DNA of 64,000 nucleotides. Origin: Methanomethylovorans hollandica DSM 15978 (lineage in GTDB: Archaea > Halobacteriota > Methanosarcinia > Methanosarcinales > Methanosarcinaceae). The notes beneath the pieces were generated by a model. That model searched no databases. It was given only the letters and a program-made list of their open reading frames with translations, and was not told the DNA's origin. This document shows positions 194 through 34,719 of the stretch, piece by piece (within the stretch, counting starts at the first letter, position 1; each line of letters begins with the position of its first letter). The position numbers and the translations under genes are program-made. The stretch spans positions 1,426,001-1,490,000 of the forward strand of contig NC_019977.1 of assembly GCF_000328665.1 (NCBI RefSeq), written 5' to 3'.

Positions 194-2278
194 ATGTCGG
201 AATACAAAGAGATATTTAAAGCTGAATCTGAAGAGCATCTGCAGCAGCTTAATGAGGCATTGCTGGGATTGGAACAAAACCCTGAAGATATGGAATATAT
301 CAACAATATGTTCCGGTCTGCCCATACCTTAAAAGGGATGTCCGCAACTATGGGATTCAACACTATTGCACAGCTTACCCATGAAATGGAAAACATCATG
401 GATATGATCAGGAAGTCTCAGATGACTCTGACCGAGAAAATAATCGCGATACAATTCGAATGTCTGGATACCCTGGAAGTACTGGTTGAGAATATTGATA
501 ATCCTGATGCTGTGGACGTGTCAACACTGCAATGTAAACTCCACAGTATAATGAGCTTACCTTCAACTGCACAGGATACAGTGGCAGTTTCAGAACCTAT
601 TACCAATCTGACATATCCTGCCCCTCCAAAGAACATCGATACTGAAATGCCTGCTGCGCAGAGCATTAGTGTTACAGAAGAAGTAAGCTGCAAAGAAGTT
701 ATCAACAAAGAAATTAAGTTCACCCAGGAAGAACTGGCTGAGATCCAACTTACAAGAGCGCATGATCAGGAAGTACTTATCGTTAAAGTGTTTCTGGATG
801 AATCATGTGTCCTCAAGGCAGCCCGTTCAAGCATGGTGCTTATGAACCTCAACAAGCTCGGAAAAGTCATTAAAACCAAACCTCCGGAAAAAGAACTTGA
901 AGATGAAAAGTTCGATTTCAGCTTTCTGGTAGTTGCTGCAACTTCTCAGAGCATGGGGTCAATACAGCACAGGATAGAAAACATTTCAGAAGTTACTAAA
1001 GTTGAAATAATTCCCTTATATACTCACAAAAAAGATGCTGTGGACCATGGAGAAAAAGTTAGAGAAGAAAAGATCTTAGACCTGGCAAACAAAAATACCA
1101 TCCAACAAAAGAAAAACGAATCCGTAAAGACCGGACAGAGCATCAGGGTCAATATTGAGAGACTGGATAATCTCATGAATCTGGTCGGAGAACTCATTAT
1201 TAATAAGATTAGACTGAACCAGCTAGCTACGGATATAAGATCAAAGGATATTGAAGAGGCTCTTGGAACCCTGGACAGACTCACCAATGAGATACAAACA
1301 GAGGTAATGGAATCAAGAATGGTCCCCATCGATCAGATCTTTAGCCGTTTCCCGAGGATGGTAAGAGATCTGGCAAAATCTGAAGGCAAGCAGATCAGTC
1401 TTGTGATAGAGGGTAAGGAAATTGAGCTTGACAGAACGGTCCTGGATGAGATAGGAGATCCATTAGTACATTTGTTGAGAAATGCTGTGGACCATGGTGT
1501 GGAATCACCTCAAGAACGTGCAAAAGCAGGTAAATCATCTGAAGGACTTGTACGCCTGGCAGCATCTAGACAAAGGAATACAGTGCTTATTGAAGTGCAG
1601 GACGACGGCAAAGGCATGGACCCTGCAAAGTTAAGAGATGCTGCTGTAAAGAAGGGCTTAATGAGCAAAGAAGAAGTTTCAAAGCTCTGTGATGAAGAAG
1701 CATTTAATCTGATATTCCTCCCGGGTTTTAGCACCAATGCCGTGATTACAGATGTATCTGGCCGGGGAGTTGGAATGGATGTTGTCAAGACAAAGATCGA
1801 ATCTTTAGGAGGAAATGTTTCAGTTAAATCCGTACTTGGAGAAGGCAGTATTGTTACGCTTCAGTTGCCTCTTACTATTGCTATCATCCAATCATTGATG
1901 ATAAGAACAGCAGGTGAAACGTACGCTATACCTCTTAACAATGTGGTAAGAGATGTAGGTATAAGATCAAAGGATATAAAGACAATAGAGGGCCAGGAAG
2001 TCATCCTGCTGCGCGGAGAGGTCTTACCGCTTTTAAGACTTAACAGTACTCTGGATTGTCCTGTTAAAGTCAACGACAAAGAGAACCTCATAGTTGTAGT
2101 GGTGGAAAAGATGGGAAACCACTTTGGTTTTGTAGTTGATGAACTGTTGGGGCAGCAAGAGGTCATAATCAAATCCCTTGACAGTAAAGTGCTGCGTAGC
2201 GTAAAAGGATTTGCAGGTGCCACTATTCAGGGAGATGGCACTGTTTGTTTGATACTTGACATTGGAACATTGGTCTGA
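194..2278 (+). CDS. cheA: Chemotaxis sensor histidine kinase CheA
   Basis: CheA autophosphorylates on a histidine in response to receptor state and passes phosphate to CheY and CheB. Visible domains are an N-terminal Hpt (P1) with AHTLKGMSATMGF carrying the phospho-His near residue 45, a P2-like domain around 190-290, a P3 dimerisation helix pair near 330-390, and the P4 ATPase with HLLRNAVDHGVE (N box), DDGKGMDP (G1) and SGRGVGMDVV (G2). A P5 CheW-like domain fills the last 140 residues. Length (694 aa) is normal. I prefer ATG 194 because GGTGAT at 179-184 sits 9 bases upstream. ATG 188 and TTG 164 are in frame but worse placed. It is co-directional with cheB and the following che genes. Confidence 0.95.
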   Translation: MSEYKEIFKAESEEHLQQLNEALLGLEQNPEDMEYINNMFRSAHTLKGMSATMGFNTIAQLTHEMENIMDMIRKSQMTLTEKIIAIQFECLDTLEVLVENIDNPDAVDVSTLQCKLHSIMSLPSTAQDTVAVSEPITNLTYPAPPKNIDTEMPAAQSISVTEEVSCKEVINKEIKFTQEELAEIQLTRAHDQEVLIVKVFLDESCVLKAARSSMVLMNLNKLGKVIKTKPPEKELEDEKFDFSFLVVAATSQSMGSIQHRIENISEVTKVEIIPLYTHKKDAVDHGEKVREEKILDLANKNTIQQKKNESVKTGQSIRVNIERLDNLMNLVGELIINKIRLNQLATDIRSKDIEEALGTLDRLTNEIQTEVMESRMVPIDQIFSRFPRMVRDLAKSEGKQISLVIEGKEIELDRTVLDEIGDPLVHLLRNAVDHGVESPQERAKAGKSSEGLVRLAASRQRNTVLIEVQDDGKGMDPAKLRDAAVKKGLMSKEEVSKLCDEEAFNLIFLPGFSTNAVITDVSGRGVGMDVVKTKIESLGGNVSVKSVLGEGSIVTLQLPLTIAIIQSLMIRTAGETYAIPLNNVVRDVGIRSKDIKTIEGQEVILLRGEVLPLLRLNSTLDCPVKVNDKENLIVVVVEKMGNHFGFVVDELLGQQEVIIKSLDSKVLRSVKGFAGATIQGDGTVCLILDIGTLV

Positions 2279-2297
2279 TACCAAAGGAGATGTAATC

Positions 2298-2912
2298 ATG
2301 CCTGAAATCGATGAGATGACAAAGGGTGCCTTTCAGGAAGCTGGGAACATAGGAATGGGGCATTTAGCTACTTCCCTATCAAAAATGGTTGACCGTGAGG
2401 TCAAGATAGATATTCCGAAAGTGGACATATATCCACTGCAAAGGATCATAGCCGAAGCTTCAGAGGGTGCTCAGAAAAGTGTGGTAGGAGTACATTTAAA
2501 GATAAGTGGTGATGTTACGGGAGGAACACTTATATTGCTACCAAAATATTCAGCCCTTTCCTTTGTAGATCTGCTAAGAAAGAAGCCTATAGGTACAACT
2601 CATGCTATCCAGGAAGAAGAAATAAAGAAACTCAGGGAAATGGGAATGCGCCTGTGCGCTGCATACATGAGAGTAGTTAATGAGTTTCTGGGGATCAATC
2701 TACAGATCGGTGAGCCAGAGATCAGTGTGGACATGGAAGGCGTCGGGAATTTTATTAGAGAAACTGTAGGGTCCATGGCAGATGAGTTCATTGTAGTGAA
2801 AGGAGTGGGCTATATACCGTCTACAAATTCCCGTAATGAGTTCAACATGCTCTTTGAACCGGGTGCATCAGATGTAATTGTTGCCGCGATCATGAAAAAG
2901 ATGATGGGATAA
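2298..2912 (+). CDS. cheC: CheC-family phosphatase, paralogue 1
   Basis: A 204-residue CheC/CheX/FliY-type protein, expected to dephosphorylate CheY-P. The first active-site signature E-x2-N-x22-P is intact (EAGN, then Pro 22 residues after the Asn). The second signature is degenerate: in EMGM a Met replaces the catalytic Asn, although the spaced Pro is kept. ATG 2298 is chosen because AAGGAGAT at 2284-2291 is a good ribosome binding site; the open frame extends upstream into the cheA end but lacks a better start. The gene lies 19 bases after cheA and is the first of three CheC-family genes in this operon. Confidence 0.85.
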   Translation: MPEIDEMTKGAFQEAGNIGMGHLATSLSKMVDREVKIDIPKVDIYPLQRIIAEASEGAQKSVVGVHLKISGDVTGGTLILLPKYSALSFVDLLRKKPIGTTHAIQEEEIKKLREMGMRLCAAYMRVVNEFLGINLQIGEPEISVDMEGVGNFIRETVGSMADEFIVVKGVGYIPSTNSRNEFNMLFEPGASDVIVAAIMKKMMG

Positions 2913-2984
2913 TAAATGCTGCCTGAGGCATGATCCAAAAAAATATTTTAGATAGAGTGAATGTAAGTCTAAGGAGTTGATCAG

Positions 2985-3806
2985 ATGTTAAAGCTGGAGT
3001 GCTCTGAAGAACAGGATTACTTGAAGTTAAAAAACCTCATTAAAAAAAACCTGGGTTTCAATAGCGAGCAATATAAGGATTCACATTTCAAACGAAGAGT
3101 TAACGTAAGAATGAGGGTAACCAATTCAAAAAATTTTGGAGAATATGTACAATATCTTAATACTCACACAGATGAGTACACACATCTGATGGATACTCTC
3201 ACAGTTAATGTAACTAATTTCTTCAGGAACTCCGAAACATATGAGGTTGTGGAGAAGGAAGTGCTGCCCTCTATAATCAAATCAAAAAGTACAGGGCTTC
3301 GGAATATACGAATATGGAGTGCAGGGTGCTCTATGGGTGTTGAAGCCTATTCCATAGCCATACTCCTTAAAAAACTACTGGGAAATGATTTCTCCAGATA
3401 TAATATCCAAATTACCGGCACTGATATTGACAAAGATATTCTAAGAAGAGCGGAAGAAGCGATATATACAGAAGTGGAAATGAAAGAAGTGCCTGAAGAC
3501 ATCCGTATTAAATATTTTGACCATGATGGGGAATGTTATCATTTAAAAGATGAGATCAAAAAAGTAGCTAAATTCCGCAGGAACGATCTTATTTCCGGAG
3601 AGAAACTCACCGGTTTTGATGCCATATTTTGCCGCAATGTCACCATATATTTTGAAAGGCATCTACAGGAAAAACTGTACATGGACTTTTACAATGGCCT
3701 TAATAAAGATGGTTTTTTTGTAATGGGTAAAACCGAAACACTGATAGGTCCGTCAAAAGACATGTTCAGAGCATTTGACCCAAGGGAAAGGATCTATCAA
3801 AAATAA
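2985..3806 (+). CDS. cheR: Chemoreceptor glutamate methyltransferase CheR
   Basis: CheR transfers a methyl group from S-adenosylmethionine to receptor glutamates, opposing CheB. The 273-residue protein has the N-terminal all-alpha CheR domain followed by the SAM-binding Rossmann domain. The SAM motif reads IWSAGCSMGVEAYS, a slight variant of the usual SAGCSTGEEPYS. FDAIFCRNVTIYF is the conserved NV-IYF segment, and GKTETLIG lies near the end. A GGAGT site at 2971-2975 precedes ATG 2985. It lies between two CheC-family genes on the same strand. Confidence 0.92.
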   Translation: MLKLECSEEQDYLKLKNLIKKNLGFNSEQYKDSHFKRRVNVRMRVTNSKNFGEYVQYLNTHTDEYTHLMDTLTVNVTNFFRNSETYEVVEKEVLPSIIKSKSTGLRNIRIWSAGCSMGVEAYSIAILLKKLLGNDFSRYNIQITGTDIDKDILRRAEEAIYTEVEMKEVPEDIRIKYFDHDGECYHLKDEIKKVAKFRRNDLISGEKLTGFDAIFCRNVTIYFERHLQEKLYMDFYNGLNKDGFFVMGKTETLIGPSKDMFRAFDPRERIYQK

Positions 3807-3840
3807 AAAAACTGGCTGCTCAACTGAAAGAGAGGATCAT

Positions 3841-4458
3841 ATGGTTTACGATATTTCCAAACTTACAGACTTTCATTACAGCGCTTTAAAAGAGATAAGC
3901 AATATAGGAATAGGTAATGCGGTCACTTCTCTGGCAGAGATGATGGGAAGTGAAATAAAGATAATGACCCCGAGCCTCAAAGTTGCCAGGATAGAGAAAG
4001 TAACAGAGTTTTCCGGAGGGGCCGATAAACTGGTTTCGGGAGTCCTTATGGAGCTGGCAGGGGGGGTCAATGGTTATATGGTCATACTTCTGCCACCGGA
4101 AAGTGCACAACTTATCTGCAACACTATGACAAAAAAGGAATACTCAGACATCACAGATCCCATGAACGAGTCGCTCATATCAGAAGTAGGTCACATCCTG
4201 GGAAGTACTTATATTACCGCTTTTTCCGATTTTCTTAAAGTGGATGTTTTTGCATCGGCCCCATTCCATACATATGACATGATAGGTGCCATAATGGACA
4301 ATATACTTATTCATATGAGCCAGGAAGTTGAACATGCCATAATTCTGGATACCCTGTTCACGCTAAAAGGTAATGATATGCATGGGAAACTTCTCACTCT
4401 GTTCGATCCCATATCTCTAGAATTGATTTTAAAGCATGTAGACGCGATGTTCTGTTGA
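3841..4458 (+). CDS. cheC: CheC-family phosphatase, paralogue 2
   Basis: A 205-residue CheC homologue. Signature 1 is complete (EISN followed by Pro after 22 residues). In signature 2 the catalytic Asn is His (EVGH), while the spacing to the Pro is preserved. ATG 3841 follows AGAGGATC at about 3830-3837 and is preferred to an upstream in-frame codon inside cheR. The CheD gene follows after 10 bases; CheC-CheD pairing is known from Thermotoga and Bacillus, where CheD stimulates CheC, so this paralogue is the likeliest CheD partner. That partnership is inferred from position only. Confidence 0.85.
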   Translation: MVYDISKLTDFHYSALKEISNIGIGNAVTSLAEMMGSEIKIMTPSLKVARIEKVTEFSGGADKLVSGVLMELAGGVNGYMVILLPPESAQLICNTMTKKEYSDITDPMNESLISEVGHILGSTYITAFSDFLKVDVFASAPFHTYDMIGAIMDNILIHMSQEVEHAIILDTLFTLKGNDMHGKLLTLFDPISLELILKHVDAMFC

Positions 4459-4468
4459 TCGACTGAAT

Positions 4469-4942
4469 ATGATAGTGGTAGGAATGGCAGATTATGCTGT
4501 GACTCGAAGTCCGGATAAATTGACAACCCTGGGCCTGGGATCATGCGTAGGTATTGCCCTCTATGATCCCGTGGCAAAAATAGGAGGATTGATACACATC
4601 ATGCTGCCAACTATTGAAAATGCACGTTTTACAGATAACTGTGCCAAATTTGCTGATAGCGGCATACCTATTGTCATACAAGAGATGGTAAGTATCGGAG
4701 CAGTGCGCAGAAGACTGGTAGCTAAAATAGCCGGTGGAGCAAAGATGTTCTCTTTTAACAGCGATGTGAACCTGAACATCGGAGAACGGAATATACAGGC
4801 CACAAAAATTGTACTTACAGAAATGAAAATACCTCTAATTGCAGAAGATGTGGGAAAGAATTATGGGCGTACTGTTGTGCTGGATACTGATACAGGAGTT
4901 TACCATATTAAAAGCGCAATAAAAGGAGAAAACTTAATTTAA
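4469..4942 (+). CDS. cheD: Chemoreceptor glutamine deamidase CheD
   Basis: CheD deamidates receptor glutamines and binds CheC. The 157-residue protein has the catalytic Cys in TLGLGSCVGIALYD (C26) and the His in GGLIHIMLP (H43), matching the C27/H44 pair of Thermotoga CheD. Later conserved segments include AKIAGGAKMF and IPLIAEDVGKNYGRT. The length is typical. It starts 10 bases after the second cheC gene and 50 bases before the DUF835 gene. Confidence 0.93.
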   Translation: MIVVGMADYAVTRSPDKLTTLGLGSCVGIALYDPVAKIGGLIHIMLPTIENARFTDNCAKFADSGIPIVIQEMVSIGAVRRRLVAKIAGGAKMFSFNSDVNLNIGERNIQATKIVLTEMKIPLIAEDVGKNYGRTVVLDTDTGVYHIKSAIKGENLI

Positions 4943-4992
4943 TAGACAAGAATTTATATTAATTGTTTGAATATATTCATTTGGAGGTAGAA

Positions 4993-29492: not shown

Positions 29493-29720
29493 TTATAGCA
29501 TTCTTTTAAAGTCTTCAATGCTTAATCCGATATCTTTGATTATAGAACTTACGATCTTGGGATGCAAACTCTTTCCAGTATGGTAGGGTATTACAATTCT
29601 TTTTGCATCATTATTTCTGAATACCATGTGACTTCCTGACTGTCTAACAAGCTGAAATCCAAGACTTTCAACAATTCTGATCAACTGCTTAGCTGTTACC
29701 CTTGGCAGTTTTTCACTCAT
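29493..29720 (-). CDS. hicA: HicA-type mRNA interferase toxin
   Basis: A 75-residue double-stranded-RNA-binding-like toxin: the conserved catalytic His is in RQSGSHMVFRN, followed by VIPYHTGKSLHPKIVSSIIKDIGLS. It cleaves mRNA when free of HicB. Its ATG overlaps the hicB stop (ATGA), the usual coupled arrangement with the antitoxin first. Confidence 0.92.
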   Translation of the reverse strand: MSEKLPRVTAKQLIRIVESLGFQLVRQSGSHMVFRNNDAKRIVIPYHTGKSLHPKIVSSIIKDIGLSIEDFKRML

Positions 29721-29941
29721 GCAGTGACCTCAACGGCTACCAGGCTGAATGAGTTGATATCTGAAATAAGATCCTCACATTCTTCCATATCCTGCAGGAC
29801 CAGCCTAATTGCATCTTTGATGTTCTCAAGTGCTTCTTCGTATGTATCGCCCTGAGAATAACACCCCTTAAGGGCCGGACACATCGCAAAATACCCGTCT
29901 TCATCTTTTTCTATTACAACAGGTAATGTGTATTTCTTCAT
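29717..29941 (-). CDS. hicB: HicB-type antitoxin
   Basis: A 74-residue partial-RNase-H-fold antitoxin: VVIEKDEDGYFAMCPALKGCYSQGDTYEEALENIKDAI is the signature. It lacks the extra DNA-binding domain of long HicB proteins. It lies directly upstream of hicA in one operon. Confidence 0.92.
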   Translation of the reverse strand: MKKYTLPVVIEKDEDGYFAMCPALKGCYSQGDTYEEALENIKDAIRLVLQDMEECEDLISDINSFSLVAVEVTA

Positions 29942-30145
29942 GCTTGCACCTTATTTTTAATATCCACACCTTGCTATTAAAAACTTCCTTTCCTGAGCAT
30001 GCTGCGAATTGTATGGATACGGCTGGCAATATTATGGAGCATGTTCTCAATGTTCATTGATGGATCCATGCTGTTCGATAGCCCTGATGTCGCGTAAAAA
30101 GAACTCATGTGGATTATTATTCACATGATCCGACCAAATTTGATC

Positions 30146-30262
30146 TCATTCACCAAACCATTCGTCTCTTGATATTTCACCATAATAGGGATCATCGTCT
30201 TCAATAATTTCGTATCTGGCTTTTTCAAGGGCTGCCTGAATGTATTCAACATCTACAGGCAG
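30146..30262 (-). pseudogene. HicB/DUF1902-like antitoxin fragment
   Basis: On the minus strand the frame reads VEYIQAALEKARYEIIEDDD followed by PYYGEISRDEWFGE and a stop. It resembles the N-terminal strand pair of a HicB-like antitoxin (IxxALEKAxYExxEDxxxYGEIP). There is no start codon, because the 5' side runs into the left end of tnpB element 3. It is a remnant. The rest of 29942-30365 holds no other supported gene. Confidence 0.45.
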
Positions 30263-31602
30263 GAGTCCCCTTGCGGAAGCTGGGGGAGGAATGCCGTGCA
30301 TATTAACCGATTACAACTAAATATTTACATGTTATCTATAAATACTTGCGTGTGAATTACTATGCATGGAATCTACTAGAACTATCCAACTGAAAATAGC
30401 TGATCCTGATTTTGATCTAGTAGAAACCATAAAGAAATATGCACAAGGTATGAACTACGTTTCTGAAATTGTTTTTGATAATGAGAAAGTAATACCTGCT
30501 AGGAAGTTACAACCTTTAGTTTACAACCACTTAAGAGAAGAACTTGGTTTGAAATCTCAGGTTAGTTGTAATATACCCAGACAAGTAGCTGGTACCTATA
30601 AAACAATTGTAGAACTTGCTAAACAAGGTTTGAGTTATTGGCAAAAGATAGTATATTCTCCTACATCGATGATATTGTCGTATAAGAGAGATTATACTAT
30701 AACTGAAAACTCAGTTAGTATAACTACTTTTAGCAGTGGAAGGAAGACCTACCAACTTGTTAATTACCCTTATGCAATGCAGTTTTTTAAGTCTCCCTGG
30801 AAGTTTGGAGCATCGAAAGTAGTCAAACATGATGATGGATCATATTACTTCCATCTGACCGTATATCAGGAAATACCCGATAAACGAACTGAAGATGCTT
30901 CTACATTCATGGGAATTGATGTTGGTATGAACTATCTGGCTGTTGCATCTACCACCGATAAGAAATGTAAGTTTTTTGCTGGTGGAGAGATTAAGAACCA
31001 GAGAAATATCTACAAGAACATGAGAGCAAGGTTACAGTCTAAGGGAACTTCATCGGCTAAAAGTGTGATGAAACAATTAGCTGGTAAAGAGAAACGTCTA
31101 ATGAAAGATGTAAACCATTGCATATCTAAAGCTATTGTTAAATTTGCAGCAGAGAACAATGTTTCAGTAATCGGGTTTGAAGATCTGACTGGTATAAGAA
31201 CACGAACTGAACACAATATATCAAAGAAACATCGGTACCATCACAGCAGTTGGGCTTTCAGACAACTGCAATCATTTGTAGCGTATAAAGCGAAATTAGC
31301 TGGAATTATTACCGAATATGTAGATCCTGCATTTACTTCCCAGACATGTTTCCGCTGTAATCATATTAGCAGGAACAATCGACACAGCCTCAAATTCCAT
31401 TGTGAAATTTGTGGTTATGAGGTGAATGCTGATCTTAATGCTGCAAGTAACTTAGAGCATAGAACACGAGATTTTAGGTATACCTTAGAATCTCAGGGGT
31501 GTCAGTCAATCACCCATACGCACGAGATGATCTGATATTATTATCAGTGACATGCAAGCCCTTTCCTCGACACGCTGTAGCGTGGCAGGGAGGGGTAATT
31601 GA
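30262..31602 (+). mobile_element. tnpB-only IS200/IS605-type element 3
   Basis: The left end is estimated at the purine-rich GGAAGCTGGGGGAGGAATGC segment near 30278-30297, similar to GGGAGGAATGCCGT at the left end of element 1. The right end is near 31590-31602, with CACGCTGTAGCGTG (31570-31583) and GGGAGGGGTAATTGAC, matching the GGGAGGGGTAGTTCAC right end of element 5. No tnpA is present. Confidence 0.6.
30366..31535 (+). CDS. tnpB: TnpB RNA-guided nuclease, element 3
   Basis: A 389-residue TnpB with Asp in MGIDVGMNYLAVAS, Glu in VIGFEDLTGIRTR and Asp in NADLNAASNLEHR, and a CFRC...CEIC zinc finger. The catalytic set is complete. Its sequence is diverged from elements 1, 2 and 4, so it represents an independent arrival. 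Start ATG 30366 follows a TATA-like AT-rich stretch. Confidence 0.88.
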   Translation: MESTRTIQLKIADPDFDLVETIKKYAQGMNYVSEIVFDNEKVIPARKLQPLVYNHLREELGLKSQVSCNIPRQVAGTYKTIVELAKQGLSYWQKIVYSPTSMILSYKRDYTITENSVSITTFSSGRKTYQLVNYPYAMQFFKSPWKFGASKVVKHDDGSYYFHLTVYQEIPDKRTEDASTFMGIDVGMNYLAVASTTDKKCKFFAGGEIKNQRNIYKNMRARLQSKGTSSAKSVMKQLAGKEKRLMKDVNHCISKAIVKFAAENNVSVIGFEDLTGIRTRTEHNISKKHRYHHSSWAFRQLQSFVAYKAKLAGIITEYVDPAFTSQTCFRCNHISRNNRHSLKFHCEICGYEVNADLNAASNLEHRTRDFRYTLESQGCQSITHTHEMI

Positions 31603-31639
31603 CTAAGCATTTGTAGCATTCGTGAAGTTTGCTATAAGA

Positions 31640-31855
31640 TATAGTTAACAACAGATATGTGTCTTCACCAGTCCTTTACGACATTGCAGCTTTGCGTTAA
31701 AAAACAGTTGCAGTAACAAATCTGTACAATATATTCTCAACGCAAAGGCGCTAAGACGCCAAGGCGCAAAGAAGTAAAGAAAAGAATAACAGGTTTGTGC
31801 CCCCGCGATACTGCGGCTTCACATTAAAGATCTATCAGTAAGAAACAAACATAGC
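31640..31855. repeat. CGCAAAG hairpin repeats between tnpB element 3 and relE
   Basis: A partial copy lies at about 31640-31715 (CAGCTTTGCGTTAAAA, then GCAGTAACAAATC) and a fuller copy at 31722-31855 (TACAATATATTCTCAACGCA, then AGGCGCTAAGACGCC). The other sequence between 31603 and 31994 shows no gene. Confidence 0.65.
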
Positions 31856-31994
31856 CGGAGAACTATTGAGCAAATCATCCAGATTATAGATACTTACTGC
31901 ATAGTAACATTACTATAACTTTTGATCACTGCTGCTTTCATATAGATCTGCATATGTCCCTTTCGTTTCATCGTTACAGAACGTAGGATTGATC

Positions 31995-32258
31995 TCAGAG
32001 CTTGCGGTAGATCACACTTCGATGACCAATGTCGATTACGAAGACAATTAGTTTGTCGCCGTCAATGCTCATGATCACACGATATTCTCCTATCCTTAAT
32101 GAATACAAAGGAGATCCCGGAGATCCTCTGAGTTTCTTTACGTGAGCTTTTGGGTCCTCTTGTATCTCCTTGATAGCAATGACTATTCTTTTCGCTACGT
32201 CAGTAGGAAGTTTCTGCAAATCTCTTCTTGCTCCGGGAGAATACAGGATGGAATACAT
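31995..32258 (-). CDS. relE: RelE/ParE-family toxin
   Basis: An 87-residue RelE-superfamily mRNA endonuclease: SILYSPGARRDLQKLP at the N-terminus, LYSLRIGEYRVIMSIDGDKL in the core and VIDIGHRSVIYRKL at the end are diagnostic. The start ATG overlaps the antitoxin stop (TGATG), so the two are translationally coupled. Confidence 0.9.
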   Translation of the reverse strand: MYSILYSPGARRDLQKLPTDVAKRIVIAIKEIQEDPKAHVKKLRGSPGSPLYSLRIGEYRVIMSIDGDKLIVFVIDIGHRSVIYRKL

Positions 32259-32491
32259 CAACTAAGCCCCAGTTCAGCTTCAATTGCTTCCTGGGTGTAG
32301 TATTTCCCCTTTTTCAGGTCTTGAAGAGCCTCTGCGATCCTTTCAAGGGTTGCATCGCTCAAAGGCTCGTTATCATATGCTATGTTCAGCAGACGGGCGA
32401 TCACATCATTATATGATTCCCTGGAATGCAGTTTCAGATCATCAAGCCTACCTTTCAGCTTTGGATCAACTTTTATTGTAGTTGCGTGCAT
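32258..32491 (-). CDS. relB: RelB-like antitoxin of the RelE toxin
   Basis: A 77-residue protein starting MHATTIKVDPKLKGRLDDLK, a ribbon-helix-helix-like DNA-binding N-terminus of the kind found in archaeal antitoxins, with a helical toxin-binding C-terminus (ERIAEALQDLKKGKYYTQEA). It lies directly upstream of the toxin. A palindromic ATATACTATGGTATAT-type sequence at about 32489-32505, just upstream of the start, may be its operator. Confidence 0.82.
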   Translation of the reverse strand: MHATTIKVDPKLKGRLDDLKLHSRESYNDVIARLLNIAYDNEPLSDATLERIAEALQDLKKGKYYTQEAIEAELGLS

Positions 32492-32952: not shown

Positions 32953-33171
32953 TCACAGCAGCGGTAGAGTCTTTACATCGGCGATACAAAGATCCGGGCG
33001 TGTTAAACAGTTTCTGCATATGCAGATCTCCAAAATGTAATAACCCAATTTCATTTTTTCGGGCTCGTGTACCATACCCTTGCTTATTCCGAAGGACAGG
33101 GTACTGTAAGCTGTAAGCGATGGGTCAATTCCAGTATTTTTCTTTTTGTGACCGTAGATGTCATGTAACAA
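32953..33171 (-). pseudogene. Fragment sharing the 5' end of the Hint-Doc gene
   Basis: A 72-codon frame begins MLHDIYGHKKKNTGID, nearly identical in DNA and protein to residues 12-26 of the Hint-Doc gene (LHDIYGHKRKNSGID), then diverges completely. The rest (three Cys, no recognised domain) may be non-coding. About 49 bases are shared. It appears to be a recombination junction or a decayed relative. 33172-33384 holds no gene I can support. Confidence 0.35.
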
Positions 33172-33384
33172 CCTGCGTCACTTGATGGTACGCCCCATCC
33201 GTTCTTGTTCAAAAAGTCTAATGGAAAGGCAACACCTTCGATAATAACCATTAGACAATATGGGATGTGTGGACGCCCTATATATATTTGAGTGTGCAGT
33301 ATCAGAAAGAGTATCTATAATTAGAGACAATATTACCTTTTTTCAAACCGTATCCCGTGATCGCCAGAAAAGAGAAAAAGTAGA

Positions 33385-33555
33385 TTAGTCGTCTAATTTG
33401 AACTGTTTCCTAAGCTCTGGCTCGAAATCCCCGTGTCCGAACTTCTTAAGAATGGCCAGCTTTTCTTCGAATGTTTCCCTCATCCATTTTTTGTGATCTT
33501 CCGGAGGTATATACTCGATCATTCCCGGCTTATATTCCTCTACAATCCTGGACAT
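33385..33555 (-). CDS. Small charged protein, possible immunity or antitoxin partner
   Basis: A 56-residue frame with ATG 33555, starting MSRIVEEYKPGMIEYIPPED and rich in Lys/Glu. GGTTGATC precedes the start. It lies 208 bases downstream of the Hint-Doc gene on the same strand, where an immunity gene would be expected, but it has its own AT-rich promoter (TATTTATATG near 33609-33620, shared with the divergent plus-strand gene). I do not recognise the family. Confidence 0.5.
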   Translation of the reverse strand: MSRIVEEYKPGMIEYIPPEDHKKWMRETFEEKLAILKKFGHGDFEPELRKQFKLDD

Positions 33556-33639
33556 TATGGATCAACCACTTTGATGAGGATATCTTTTGATATATCAGCA
33601 GACACCACATATAAATAATTCTAAGTTGTAGTCTACATC

Positions 33640-33768
33640 ATGGACAAAAAACAAACAACCCACCAGAATAATAAAGAAGTACCTGTTCTGGAAATAAAGA
33701 TTGGAAAGCATCTAAAGAACAGTATGCATGATAATGATGCACTATTAAAAGAACTTGCAGAGTTATAG
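33640..33768 (+). CDS. Small hypothetical protein, probably leaderless
   Basis: A 42-codon frame (MDKKQTTHQNNKEVPVLEIK at its N-terminus), hydrophilic and probably helical towards the C-terminus. ATATAAATA at 33609-33617 lies about 25-30 bases before the ATG, so the mRNA probably begins at or beside the start codon. It overlaps the 3' end of the convergent doc gene by 6 bases and would produce antisense RNA to that end. Function unknown. Confidence 0.4.
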   Translation: MDKKQTTHQNNKEVPVLEIKIGKHLKNSMHDNDALLKELAEL

Positions 33769-34719
33769 CTCTGCTGTATTCCTTCTTATCCACTCTTCTA
33801 TTGCGTCCACTGACATTTTATACTCAGCCACTGTGATTAGCATTTTCTTAGTGGTATTTTTATCCGCGACAATTTTGTATCCTCCATTTCTGAGGATAAC
33901 ATCGGCTAATGCAAATGCAGTTCTTTTGTTGCCATCAAAAAATGCGTGAGCCGTTGTGATGGTATGCAATGCTATGGCTGCATTTGCGAAAACAGTTTTT
34001 AAGGGGCTCAATTTATACTGAATAAGGTGATCAATAGTGGCTTCAATCATTGTACCATTTGTGCCGCCATATTTCTCAATGAGAGTATCATGGAGCGTAA
34101 TGATATCTTTCGTCTTCAAGCCGTCCATTAGTAGGGATGGGGTATTATTCGATATACTCTTTTTGGGAACTTCCACTCTGAGAGAAACACTCACGCCCTT
34201 CTCAAAAATAATCCTTGCTGCAAGATCCTGATCCAGAACATACTTAGAGATCCTGTACTTATCGTTGAACTTGTCGATGTTCTCAAATGCTTTGTCAACC
34301 TTTGCAGAATCGTCTAGGACACCTGAGAAATCCCTGTTCTCAAATATCATGTTTTTGTCGATCTCTTTTGTGATTGGTACTGGAACAAGGCCAGATCTGC
34401 AGTTGTGCACTACAATACCGTTTGCAATATAGCTCTCATCTTCCAAGACCGCTATATTGTATACCTGCTTAGGCTCGGATGGCTGTGAAACAATGACAAA
34501 TCCGTATCCTTTGACTGTGCATACCATGTCATCTACATTCAGCTGTCCAGCTTCCACCCACTGGTATACACCGTTGTACATATCCCATTGAAGTATGGGG
34601 TGGTTCGGTGTGATACGAATATGATAAGACGACGTATGCAGGTCAATTCCAGAGTTTTTCCTTTTGTGACCGTAGATGTCATGCAACAACAGAGCACACA
34701 AAGAGTGCGCATAGCCCAC
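33763..34719 (-). CDS. Truncated Hint (intein)-Doc protein with MuF-like junction
   Basis: A 318-residue frame with two domains. Residues ~12-105 are the C-terminal part of a Hint/intein domain: RITPNHPILQW (block B-like Thr-x-x-His), WVEAGQLNVDDMV, and VYNIAVLEDESYIANGIVVH with terminal HN-C (blocks F and G). The residues after the splice junction, CRSGLVPVP, resemble the conserved NCRxxLVPV end of phage MuF (SPP1 gp7) head proteins. Residues ~185-318 are a Doc/Fic domain with TAHAFFDGNKRTAFALAD. The N-terminal Cys block of the intein and the MuF body are missing, so this looks like the 3' part of a MuF polymorphic toxin gene. GTG 34719 is only the first available start. Confidence 0.6.
   Translation of the reverse strand: MGYAHSLCALLLHDIYGHKRKNSGIDLHTSSYHIRITPNHPILQWDMYNGVYQWVEAGQLNVDDMVCTVKGYGFVIVSQPSEPKQVYNIAVLEDESYIANGIVVHNCRSGLVPVPITKEIDKNMIFENRDFSGVLDDSAKVDKAFENIDKFNDKYRISKYVLDQDLAARIIFEKGVSVSLRVEVPKKSISNNTPSLLMDGLKTKDIITLHDTLIEKYGGTNGTMIEATIDHLIQYKLSPLKTVFANAAIALHTITTAHAFFDGNKRTAFALADVILRNGGYKIVADKNTTKKMLITVAEYKMSVDAIEEWIRRNTAEL

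What the first reader, a model, noticed from the sequence alone, without database searches (positions are those of the whole stretch)
33763..34719. Remnant of a possible MuF-intein-Doc phage toxin
An intein C-terminus (blocks B, F and G ending HN-C) is followed by CRSGLVPVP, matching the NCRxxLVPV end of MuF phage head proteins, then by a Doc/Fic domain with an intact HAFFDGNKRTA motif. A MuF-linked Fic toxin with an intein placed exactly at the conserved MuF Cys would be an unusual architecture, especially in an archaeon.
Basis: partly seen in the sequence, partly recalled or inferred. Interest (0 to 1): 0.7.

Follow-up and report, generated by a model that had tools for sequence, protein, structure and literature searches.

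The report
Archaeal virus relic with Doc toxin–antitoxin
A broken piece of an archaeal virus's head gene, cut off inside a self-splicing protein insert, still carries a complete Doc growth-arrest toxin, and facing it tail-to-tail is a tiny gene whose relatives sit beside Doc toxins across methane-cycling and related archaea and are probably an undescribed family of Doc antidotes.

Summary
The 318-aa minus-strand ORF at 33763-34719 contains intein blocks B, F and G ending HN|C, a MuF tail, and a Doc domain with an intact HAFFDGNKR motif. MuF identity is shown: an intact MuF gene of a provirus in the same genome matches residues 106-185 at 59%, aligned on the invariant Cys, with no intein there. 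A related virus contig (L071) has MuF fused to intein block A at that Cys, then a stop, an HNH gene in another frame, then intein C-half plus MuF tail (a 'fractured' gene). Vibrio and Gordonia phages carry inteins at the same Cys, so the intein placement is not unique.

The window copy is a relic: MuF N-terminus and intein block A are gone, so it cannot splice. No intact MuF-intein-Doc was found in about 580 archaeal genomes or in IMG/VR.

A 42-aa plus-strand ORF (33640-33768), with a TATA box, runs tail-to-tail into doc. Relatives lie convergent with doc in 33 of 54 loci and downstream on the same strand in about 8 more, and match no family library searched. It is probably the antitoxin. Whether Doc was part of the MuF protein, or a separate gene, is unresolved.

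The parts
33763..34719 (-). 318-aa ORF: truncated intein + MuF tail + Doc
34591..34614 (-). intein block B (ITPNHPIL, residues 36-43)
34417..34464 (-). intein block F (VYNIAVLEDESYIANG)
34399..34416 (-). intein block G and splice junction IVVHN|C; Cys107 codon 34399-34401 = invariant MuF Cys
34165..34401 (-). MuF C-terminal tail (residues 107-185), homologous to intact MuF of the provirus in the same genome up to that protein's last residue
33766..34128 (-). Doc toxin domain (residues 198-318), Met198 at the start position of free-standing Docs
33916..33948 (-). Fic/Doc catalytic motif HAFFDGNKRTA
33640..33768 (+). 42-aa candidate antitoxin, tail-to-tail with doc, 6-nt overlap
   Evidence: profile built without it finds it at E=4.7e-6, next best 3.9 of 2353 segments; 94%-identical second copy keeps it
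33610..33617 (+). TATA box TATAAATA starting 30 nt before the candidate antitoxin ATG, kept in the second copy
   Evidence: similar boxes before relatives
33385..33555 (-). 56-aa ORF of unknown function between the toxin module and the protease-like fragment
33175..33251 (-). start of the next head gene (protease-like position), cut after ~26 codons
   Evidence: 81% DNA identity to L006, 71% to L005
33123..33172 (.). 50-nt direct repeat, left copy, abutting the cut protease-like fragment
34641..34690 (.). 50-nt direct repeat, right copy, about 26 nt before intein block B

Best explanation
This is a ~1.5-kb relic of a tailed provirus of methanogens (MuF minor-head gene to start of the next head gene). 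In the ancestor the MuF gene held an intein at its invariant Cys, which spliced itself out after translation, and the MuF C-terminal effector slot held a Doc toxin. The small convergent gene behind it made the antitoxin that protects the lysogen. By analogy with other MuF proteins the toxin would enter the next cell with the viral DNA and halt translation by modifying aEF1A at the Thr equivalent to EF-Tu Thr382. Today the MuF N-terminus and intein block A are gone, so no splicing or virion role remains; only the Doc module and its antitoxin gene look intact. Shown by sequence: intein C-half, MuF tail, site identity, Doc, convergent conserved partner. Inferred: antitoxin activity, substrate, virion delivery, that Doc was translated as part of MuF.
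For: Intact MuF in the same genome aligned through the Cys. MuF + intein block A at the same Cys in a virus whose portal is 47% identical to that provirus; IntC + MuF tail 49% identical. Same-site inteins in Vibrio and Gordonia phages. MuF relatives with other C-terminal domains at the same slot. Second Doc copy also beside the start of the next head gene. Convergent partner: profile E=4.7e-6 against next best 3.9; 32 of 45 listed genome-wide hits (E at or below 0.001) in 186 genomes lie convergent to a doc; 33 of 54 doc loci convergent, about 8 downstream on the same strand. Host aEF1A keeps the Thr (GRFAIRDMGMTIAAG).
Against: No other MuF-Doc fusion in ~580 archaeal genomes or by pattern scan of IMG/VR. 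MuF homology ends at the stop position of the intact MuF, and Doc has an own Met plus a TATA-like stretch 12 codons later. pN is about equal to pS between the two Doc copies, from only 8 changes. No toxicity or rescue data. Thirteen antitoxin hits have no detected doc beside them.
Confidence: 0.66

Rival explanations
1. The doc-antitoxin pair is a free-standing TA module that landed directly behind the viral MuF gene; the joined reading frame is accidental (loss of the MuF stop) and Doc is made from its own ATG at 34128. It serves as an ordinary addiction or abortive-infection module.
For: Met198 aligns with the starts of free-standing Docs; the intact MuF stops at residue 185 of the alignment; no fused relatives; TATA-like AGTATATC upstream of the ATG; a 36-nt linker in frame without a stop is not improbable.
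Against: The same slot carries fused domains in relatives. A non-fused MuF-doc pair was not found either.
Confidence: 0.35
2. The convergent small ORF is not an antitoxin but another conserved neighbour, for example a regulator or a host-target mimic.
For: No biochemical data; no detectable match to Phd or any solved structure; 13 of 45 hits without a detected doc.
Against: It tracks doc in two different gene orders (convergent and co-directional). Most of these loci have no other recognisable antitoxin, while the Methanosarcina doc clade lacking it has an upstream antitoxin-like gene instead.
Confidence: 0.15
3. The whole segment is functionless decaying provirus DNA, flanked by a 50-nt duplication.
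For: Loss of MuF N-terminus and intein block A; truncated next head gene; second copy has lost the Doc start; pN about equal to pS.
Against: Doc and antitoxin frames and the TATA box are intact in the window copy; too few changes to judge selection.
Confidence: 0.35
4. It is an orphan C-terminal cassette kept as a recombination reservoir for a full-length MuF, as orphan CTs are in CDI and Rhs systems.
For: Orphan MuF-tail cassettes without the N-terminus also occur in G121 (L033, a full MuF lies about 5.5 kb away) and G143 (L038).
Against: Here the full MuF lies about 250 kb away and is only 59% identical over the tail, so recombination would be rare.
Confidence: 0.1

Closest known systems
MuF polymorphic toxins of temperate phages (PMC5576092, PMC3482391)
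   Same: MuF head domain with exchangeable C-terminal toxin and adjacent immunity gene; zincin-like and other C-terminal domains in the archaeal relatives
   Different: Tox-Doc is listed in PMC3482391 only with T5SS and T7SS, not with MuF; PMC5576092 has no hit for Fic or intein in its text; here the partner gene is convergent
Inteins in MuF-like minor capsid proteins (Gordonia phage Sitar, Vibrio phages 1.265.O and 1.266.O)
   Same: intein inserted exactly before the conserved C-R Cys; block F/G region 49% identical over 55 aa to Vibrio 1.266.O
   Different: archaeal virus lineage; window copy truncated; relative L071 is split with an HNH gene between the halves
Fractured genes / split inteins with free-standing endonuclease (known from memory, Dassa 2009)
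   Same: L071: IntN ~90 aa, stop, HNH gene, IntC 37 aa
   Different: host gene is MuF; contig related to archaeal proviruses; splicing not tested
Phd-Doc type II TA (TIGR01550)
   Same: Doc toxin, HxFxDxNKR motif
   Different: partner is 42-60 aa, downstream, usually convergent, matches no family; no Phd-like gene detected next to doc here

Membership tests
MuF polymorphic toxin | MuF N-terminal domain (TIGR01641 / PF04233) | tested here: not met
   absent from the window ORF itself, only the tail remains; present in relatives L005, L027, L028, L071
MuF polymorphic toxin | C-terminal toxin domain in the same polypeptide | tested here: inconclusive
   open frame MuF tail to Doc, but own Met and MuF end coincide
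MuF polymorphic toxin | adjacent immunity gene | tested here: inconclusive
   conserved convergent partner found; immunity not assayed
Intein | blocks F and G with HN|C | tested here: met
Intein | block A (Cys1) for splicing | tested here: not met
   no block A recognised in the 339-aa open frame; present in relative L071
Doc (TIGR01550) | profile above curated cut-off and HxFx[DN]xNKR | tested here: met
   68.3 against cut-off 38.65 bits; HAFFDGNKR
Phd-Doc TA system | upstream same-strand Phd antitoxin | tested here: not met
   no such ORF upstream of Doc; small partner is convergent instead
Phd-Doc TA system | antitoxin neutralises Doc | not testable with these tools
   needs an expression assay

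The most novel reading that the evidence does not exclude
An undescribed antitoxin family of ~42-60 residues, too short for an obvious DNA-binding domain, defined by a C-terminal motif LTxxExxxLxESMxxNDxLLKxLAxM. It partners archaeal Doc toxins, mostly encoded tail-to-tail from its own TATA promoter and in other lineages co-directionally downstream; a methanogen virus carried the pair at its MuF head-protein effector slot.
Probability: 0.6. Interest if true: 0.6.

Novelty: new variant of a known kind. Interest (0 to 1): 0.52.

Why it matters
It extends the MuF-intein site to a virus lineage of methanogens, including a split-intein arrangement with an HNH gene in a capsid gene (testable trans-splicing). 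It points to an unannotated partner for archaeal Doc toxins, most of which here appear to lack a Phd gene. Convergent toxin-antitoxin genes imply control unlike the usual operon autoregulation, and the 42-aa size makes the neutralising element easy to test.

Tried and rejected
AlphaFold model of P0001 with 3 sequences: mean pLDDT 42, not used. Phage and plasmid collections with P0001: nothing useful. Idea that the antitoxin is a Phd tail: no detectable profile match to Phd or to any solved chain, kept only as a resemblance by eye. Idea that the 50-nt repeat is intein sequence in another frame: only suggestive (shuffle p between 0.03 and 0.16), unresolved. Doc frames with long N-terminal extensions in G498, G433 and G253 were checked as possible MuF-Doc fusions: no MuF seen. 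No Rfam or tRNA hit in the window. Literature searches for MuF + intein and for convergent Doc antitoxins found nothing relevant in the library held.

Full report
WHAT IS THERE. The window lies at C2:1426001-1490000 of a 2.71-Mb methanogen genome in two contigs. The size suggests Methanomethylovorans hollandica; that name is from memory, not tested. The minus-strand ORF 33763-34719 reads, from its N-terminus: about 28 residues without an intein motif, intein blocks B, F and G ending HN, then Cys107, a MuF tail (107-185), a 12-residue linker and a Doc domain (198-318). Pfam, NCBIfam, PHROG and PDB searches agree on intein C-terminus and Doc.

MuF IS SHOWN, NOT ONLY SUGGESTED. The same genome holds a provirus (L005) with terminase, portal, MuF and capsid-type genes. 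Its MuF protein, TIGR01641 E=1.8e-23, aligns with window residues 106-185 at 59% identity. An alignment of 14 MuF proteins from the order places window Cys107 on an invariant Cys.

THE INTEIN SITE. None of the intact MuF genes of Methanosarcinaceae read here has an intein at that Cys, but L071 (IMG/VR UViG_3300034257_000039; portal 47% identical to that of L005) does: MuF...HHHC|LIQGTKIETSFGEK...stop at 4957, then an HNH endonuclease ORF (PF01844) in another frame, then an ORF ending VYNLAVLKDESYIANGVIVHN|CRSALLPV plus MuF tail. That is the layout of a fractured gene with a split intein of ~90 + 37 residues; trans-splicing is inferred. In bacteria, Vibrio phages 1.266.O and 1.265.O and Gordonia phage Sitar carry whole inteins at the same Cys. 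The window intein lacks block A, so it cannot splice.

THE C-TERMINAL SLOT. After the conserved tail, MuF relatives end, or continue into a THNHP-containing domain (L027, L029-L032, L067) or a zincin-like domain (L028, L062, L068). THNHP types are followed by a conserved same-strand gene (CDAFPxGIPxEIWxGxNxHxxxYPGDxGxxFE), a candidate immunity gene. So a toxin in this slot would be expected. Doc in this slot was not seen again in about 580 genomes. Because the intact MuF stops where the window homology stops, and Doc has its own Met 12 codons later, a fused toxin and two adjacent genes both remain possible.

THE CONVERGENT PARTNER. In the nearest archaeal doc loci a small ORF faces doc and overlaps or abuts its 3' end. 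A profile from 23 such ORFs, window excluded, finds the window ORF 33640-33768 at E=4.7e-6; the next of 2353 segments has E=3.9. A search of 186 genomes with 13 of these proteins gave 45 hits at E at or below 0.001 (list). Of these, 32 lie beside a doc, all convergent; 13 have no detected doc (13 of the hits trained the model). Among 54 doc loci, 33 have it convergent and about 8, mostly in other families of the phylum, have it downstream on the same strand, for example LRPEYRKALEESMKEYDDLLRALAKL. Methanosarcina docs without it have an upstream 83-aa antitoxin-like gene. Orientation labels follow the Doc tree: 7 changes against 19.6 in shuffles, clustered but not single-origin. Conservation of the partner through a change of gene order is the strongest evidence that it is functionally tied to doc. 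The overlap with doc is 6 nt in the window and about 22 nt at most elsewhere, too short to explain a 25-residue motif. TATA-like boxes precede many of these ORFs. No Pfam, NCBIfam, PADLOC or PDB family fits.

HOW IT WOULD WORK. Established for P1 Doc (from memory): phosphorylation of EF-Tu Thr382, blocked by Phd. The host's aEF1A keeps the equivalent Thr. Inferred: the small protein caps Doc; in the intact virus the toxin acted in a newly infected or competing cell, and the prophage was protected. In the present genome only the toxin pair could still act.

STATE OF THE RELIC. Left end: the next head gene is cut after about 26 codons. A 50-nt direct repeat sits at both ends of the viral piece, cause unknown. 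A second relic (L006) has Doc cut at its first few residues, the same partner gene and the same downstream start. pN and pS between the copies are equal within very small counts.

VERDICT. The intein is a further member of a known kind and the MuF-Doc link is not proven. The convergent partner family is what deserves follow-up.

Noticed in passing
L005 (G000:C2:1200000-1219999) 2019-4547 and 2623-3591: Terminase gene of the provirus in the same genome has an intein, and a 322-aa HNH endonuclease ORF lies nested in it in the +1 frame. Both frames have homologues at the same +1 offset in Gordonia phage Clown terminase (33% id E=2e-43; 30% id E=3e-37). Compare the hidden out-of-frame HNH in a phage methylase insertion (PMC11855218), which is not an intein.
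   Followed up: partly
L071 3989-6132: MuF gene split by intein halves with an HNH gene between them, in a contig related to archaeal proviruses.
   Followed up: partly
L033 6759-7471: An HNH gene 59% identical to that of L071 (over 31-226) sits convergent right behind an intein-free MuF gene.
   Followed up: no
L131 (G048) 659-970: A 103-aa protein ends in the antitoxin-like motif after an unrelated N-terminal part, with no doc detected beside it.
   Followed up: no
L005 9330-9548: A 72-aa ORF convergent with the intact MuF, overlapping its stop by 4 nt, unlike the antitoxin family.
   Followed up: no
window 29493-32491: Cluster of HicAB and ParE-type/DUF7557 toxin-antitoxin genes and an IS605-type TnpB left of the relic.
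   Followed up: partly
window 33123-33172 and 34641-34690: 50-nt direct repeat, 92% identical, flanking the viral piece; not found elsewhere in the genome by the DNA search.
   Followed up: partly
L027 3103-3330 and relatives: Conserved small gene with CDAFPEGIPxEIW motif directly behind MuF genes with THNHP or zincin-like domains; candidate immunity gene.
   Followed up: no
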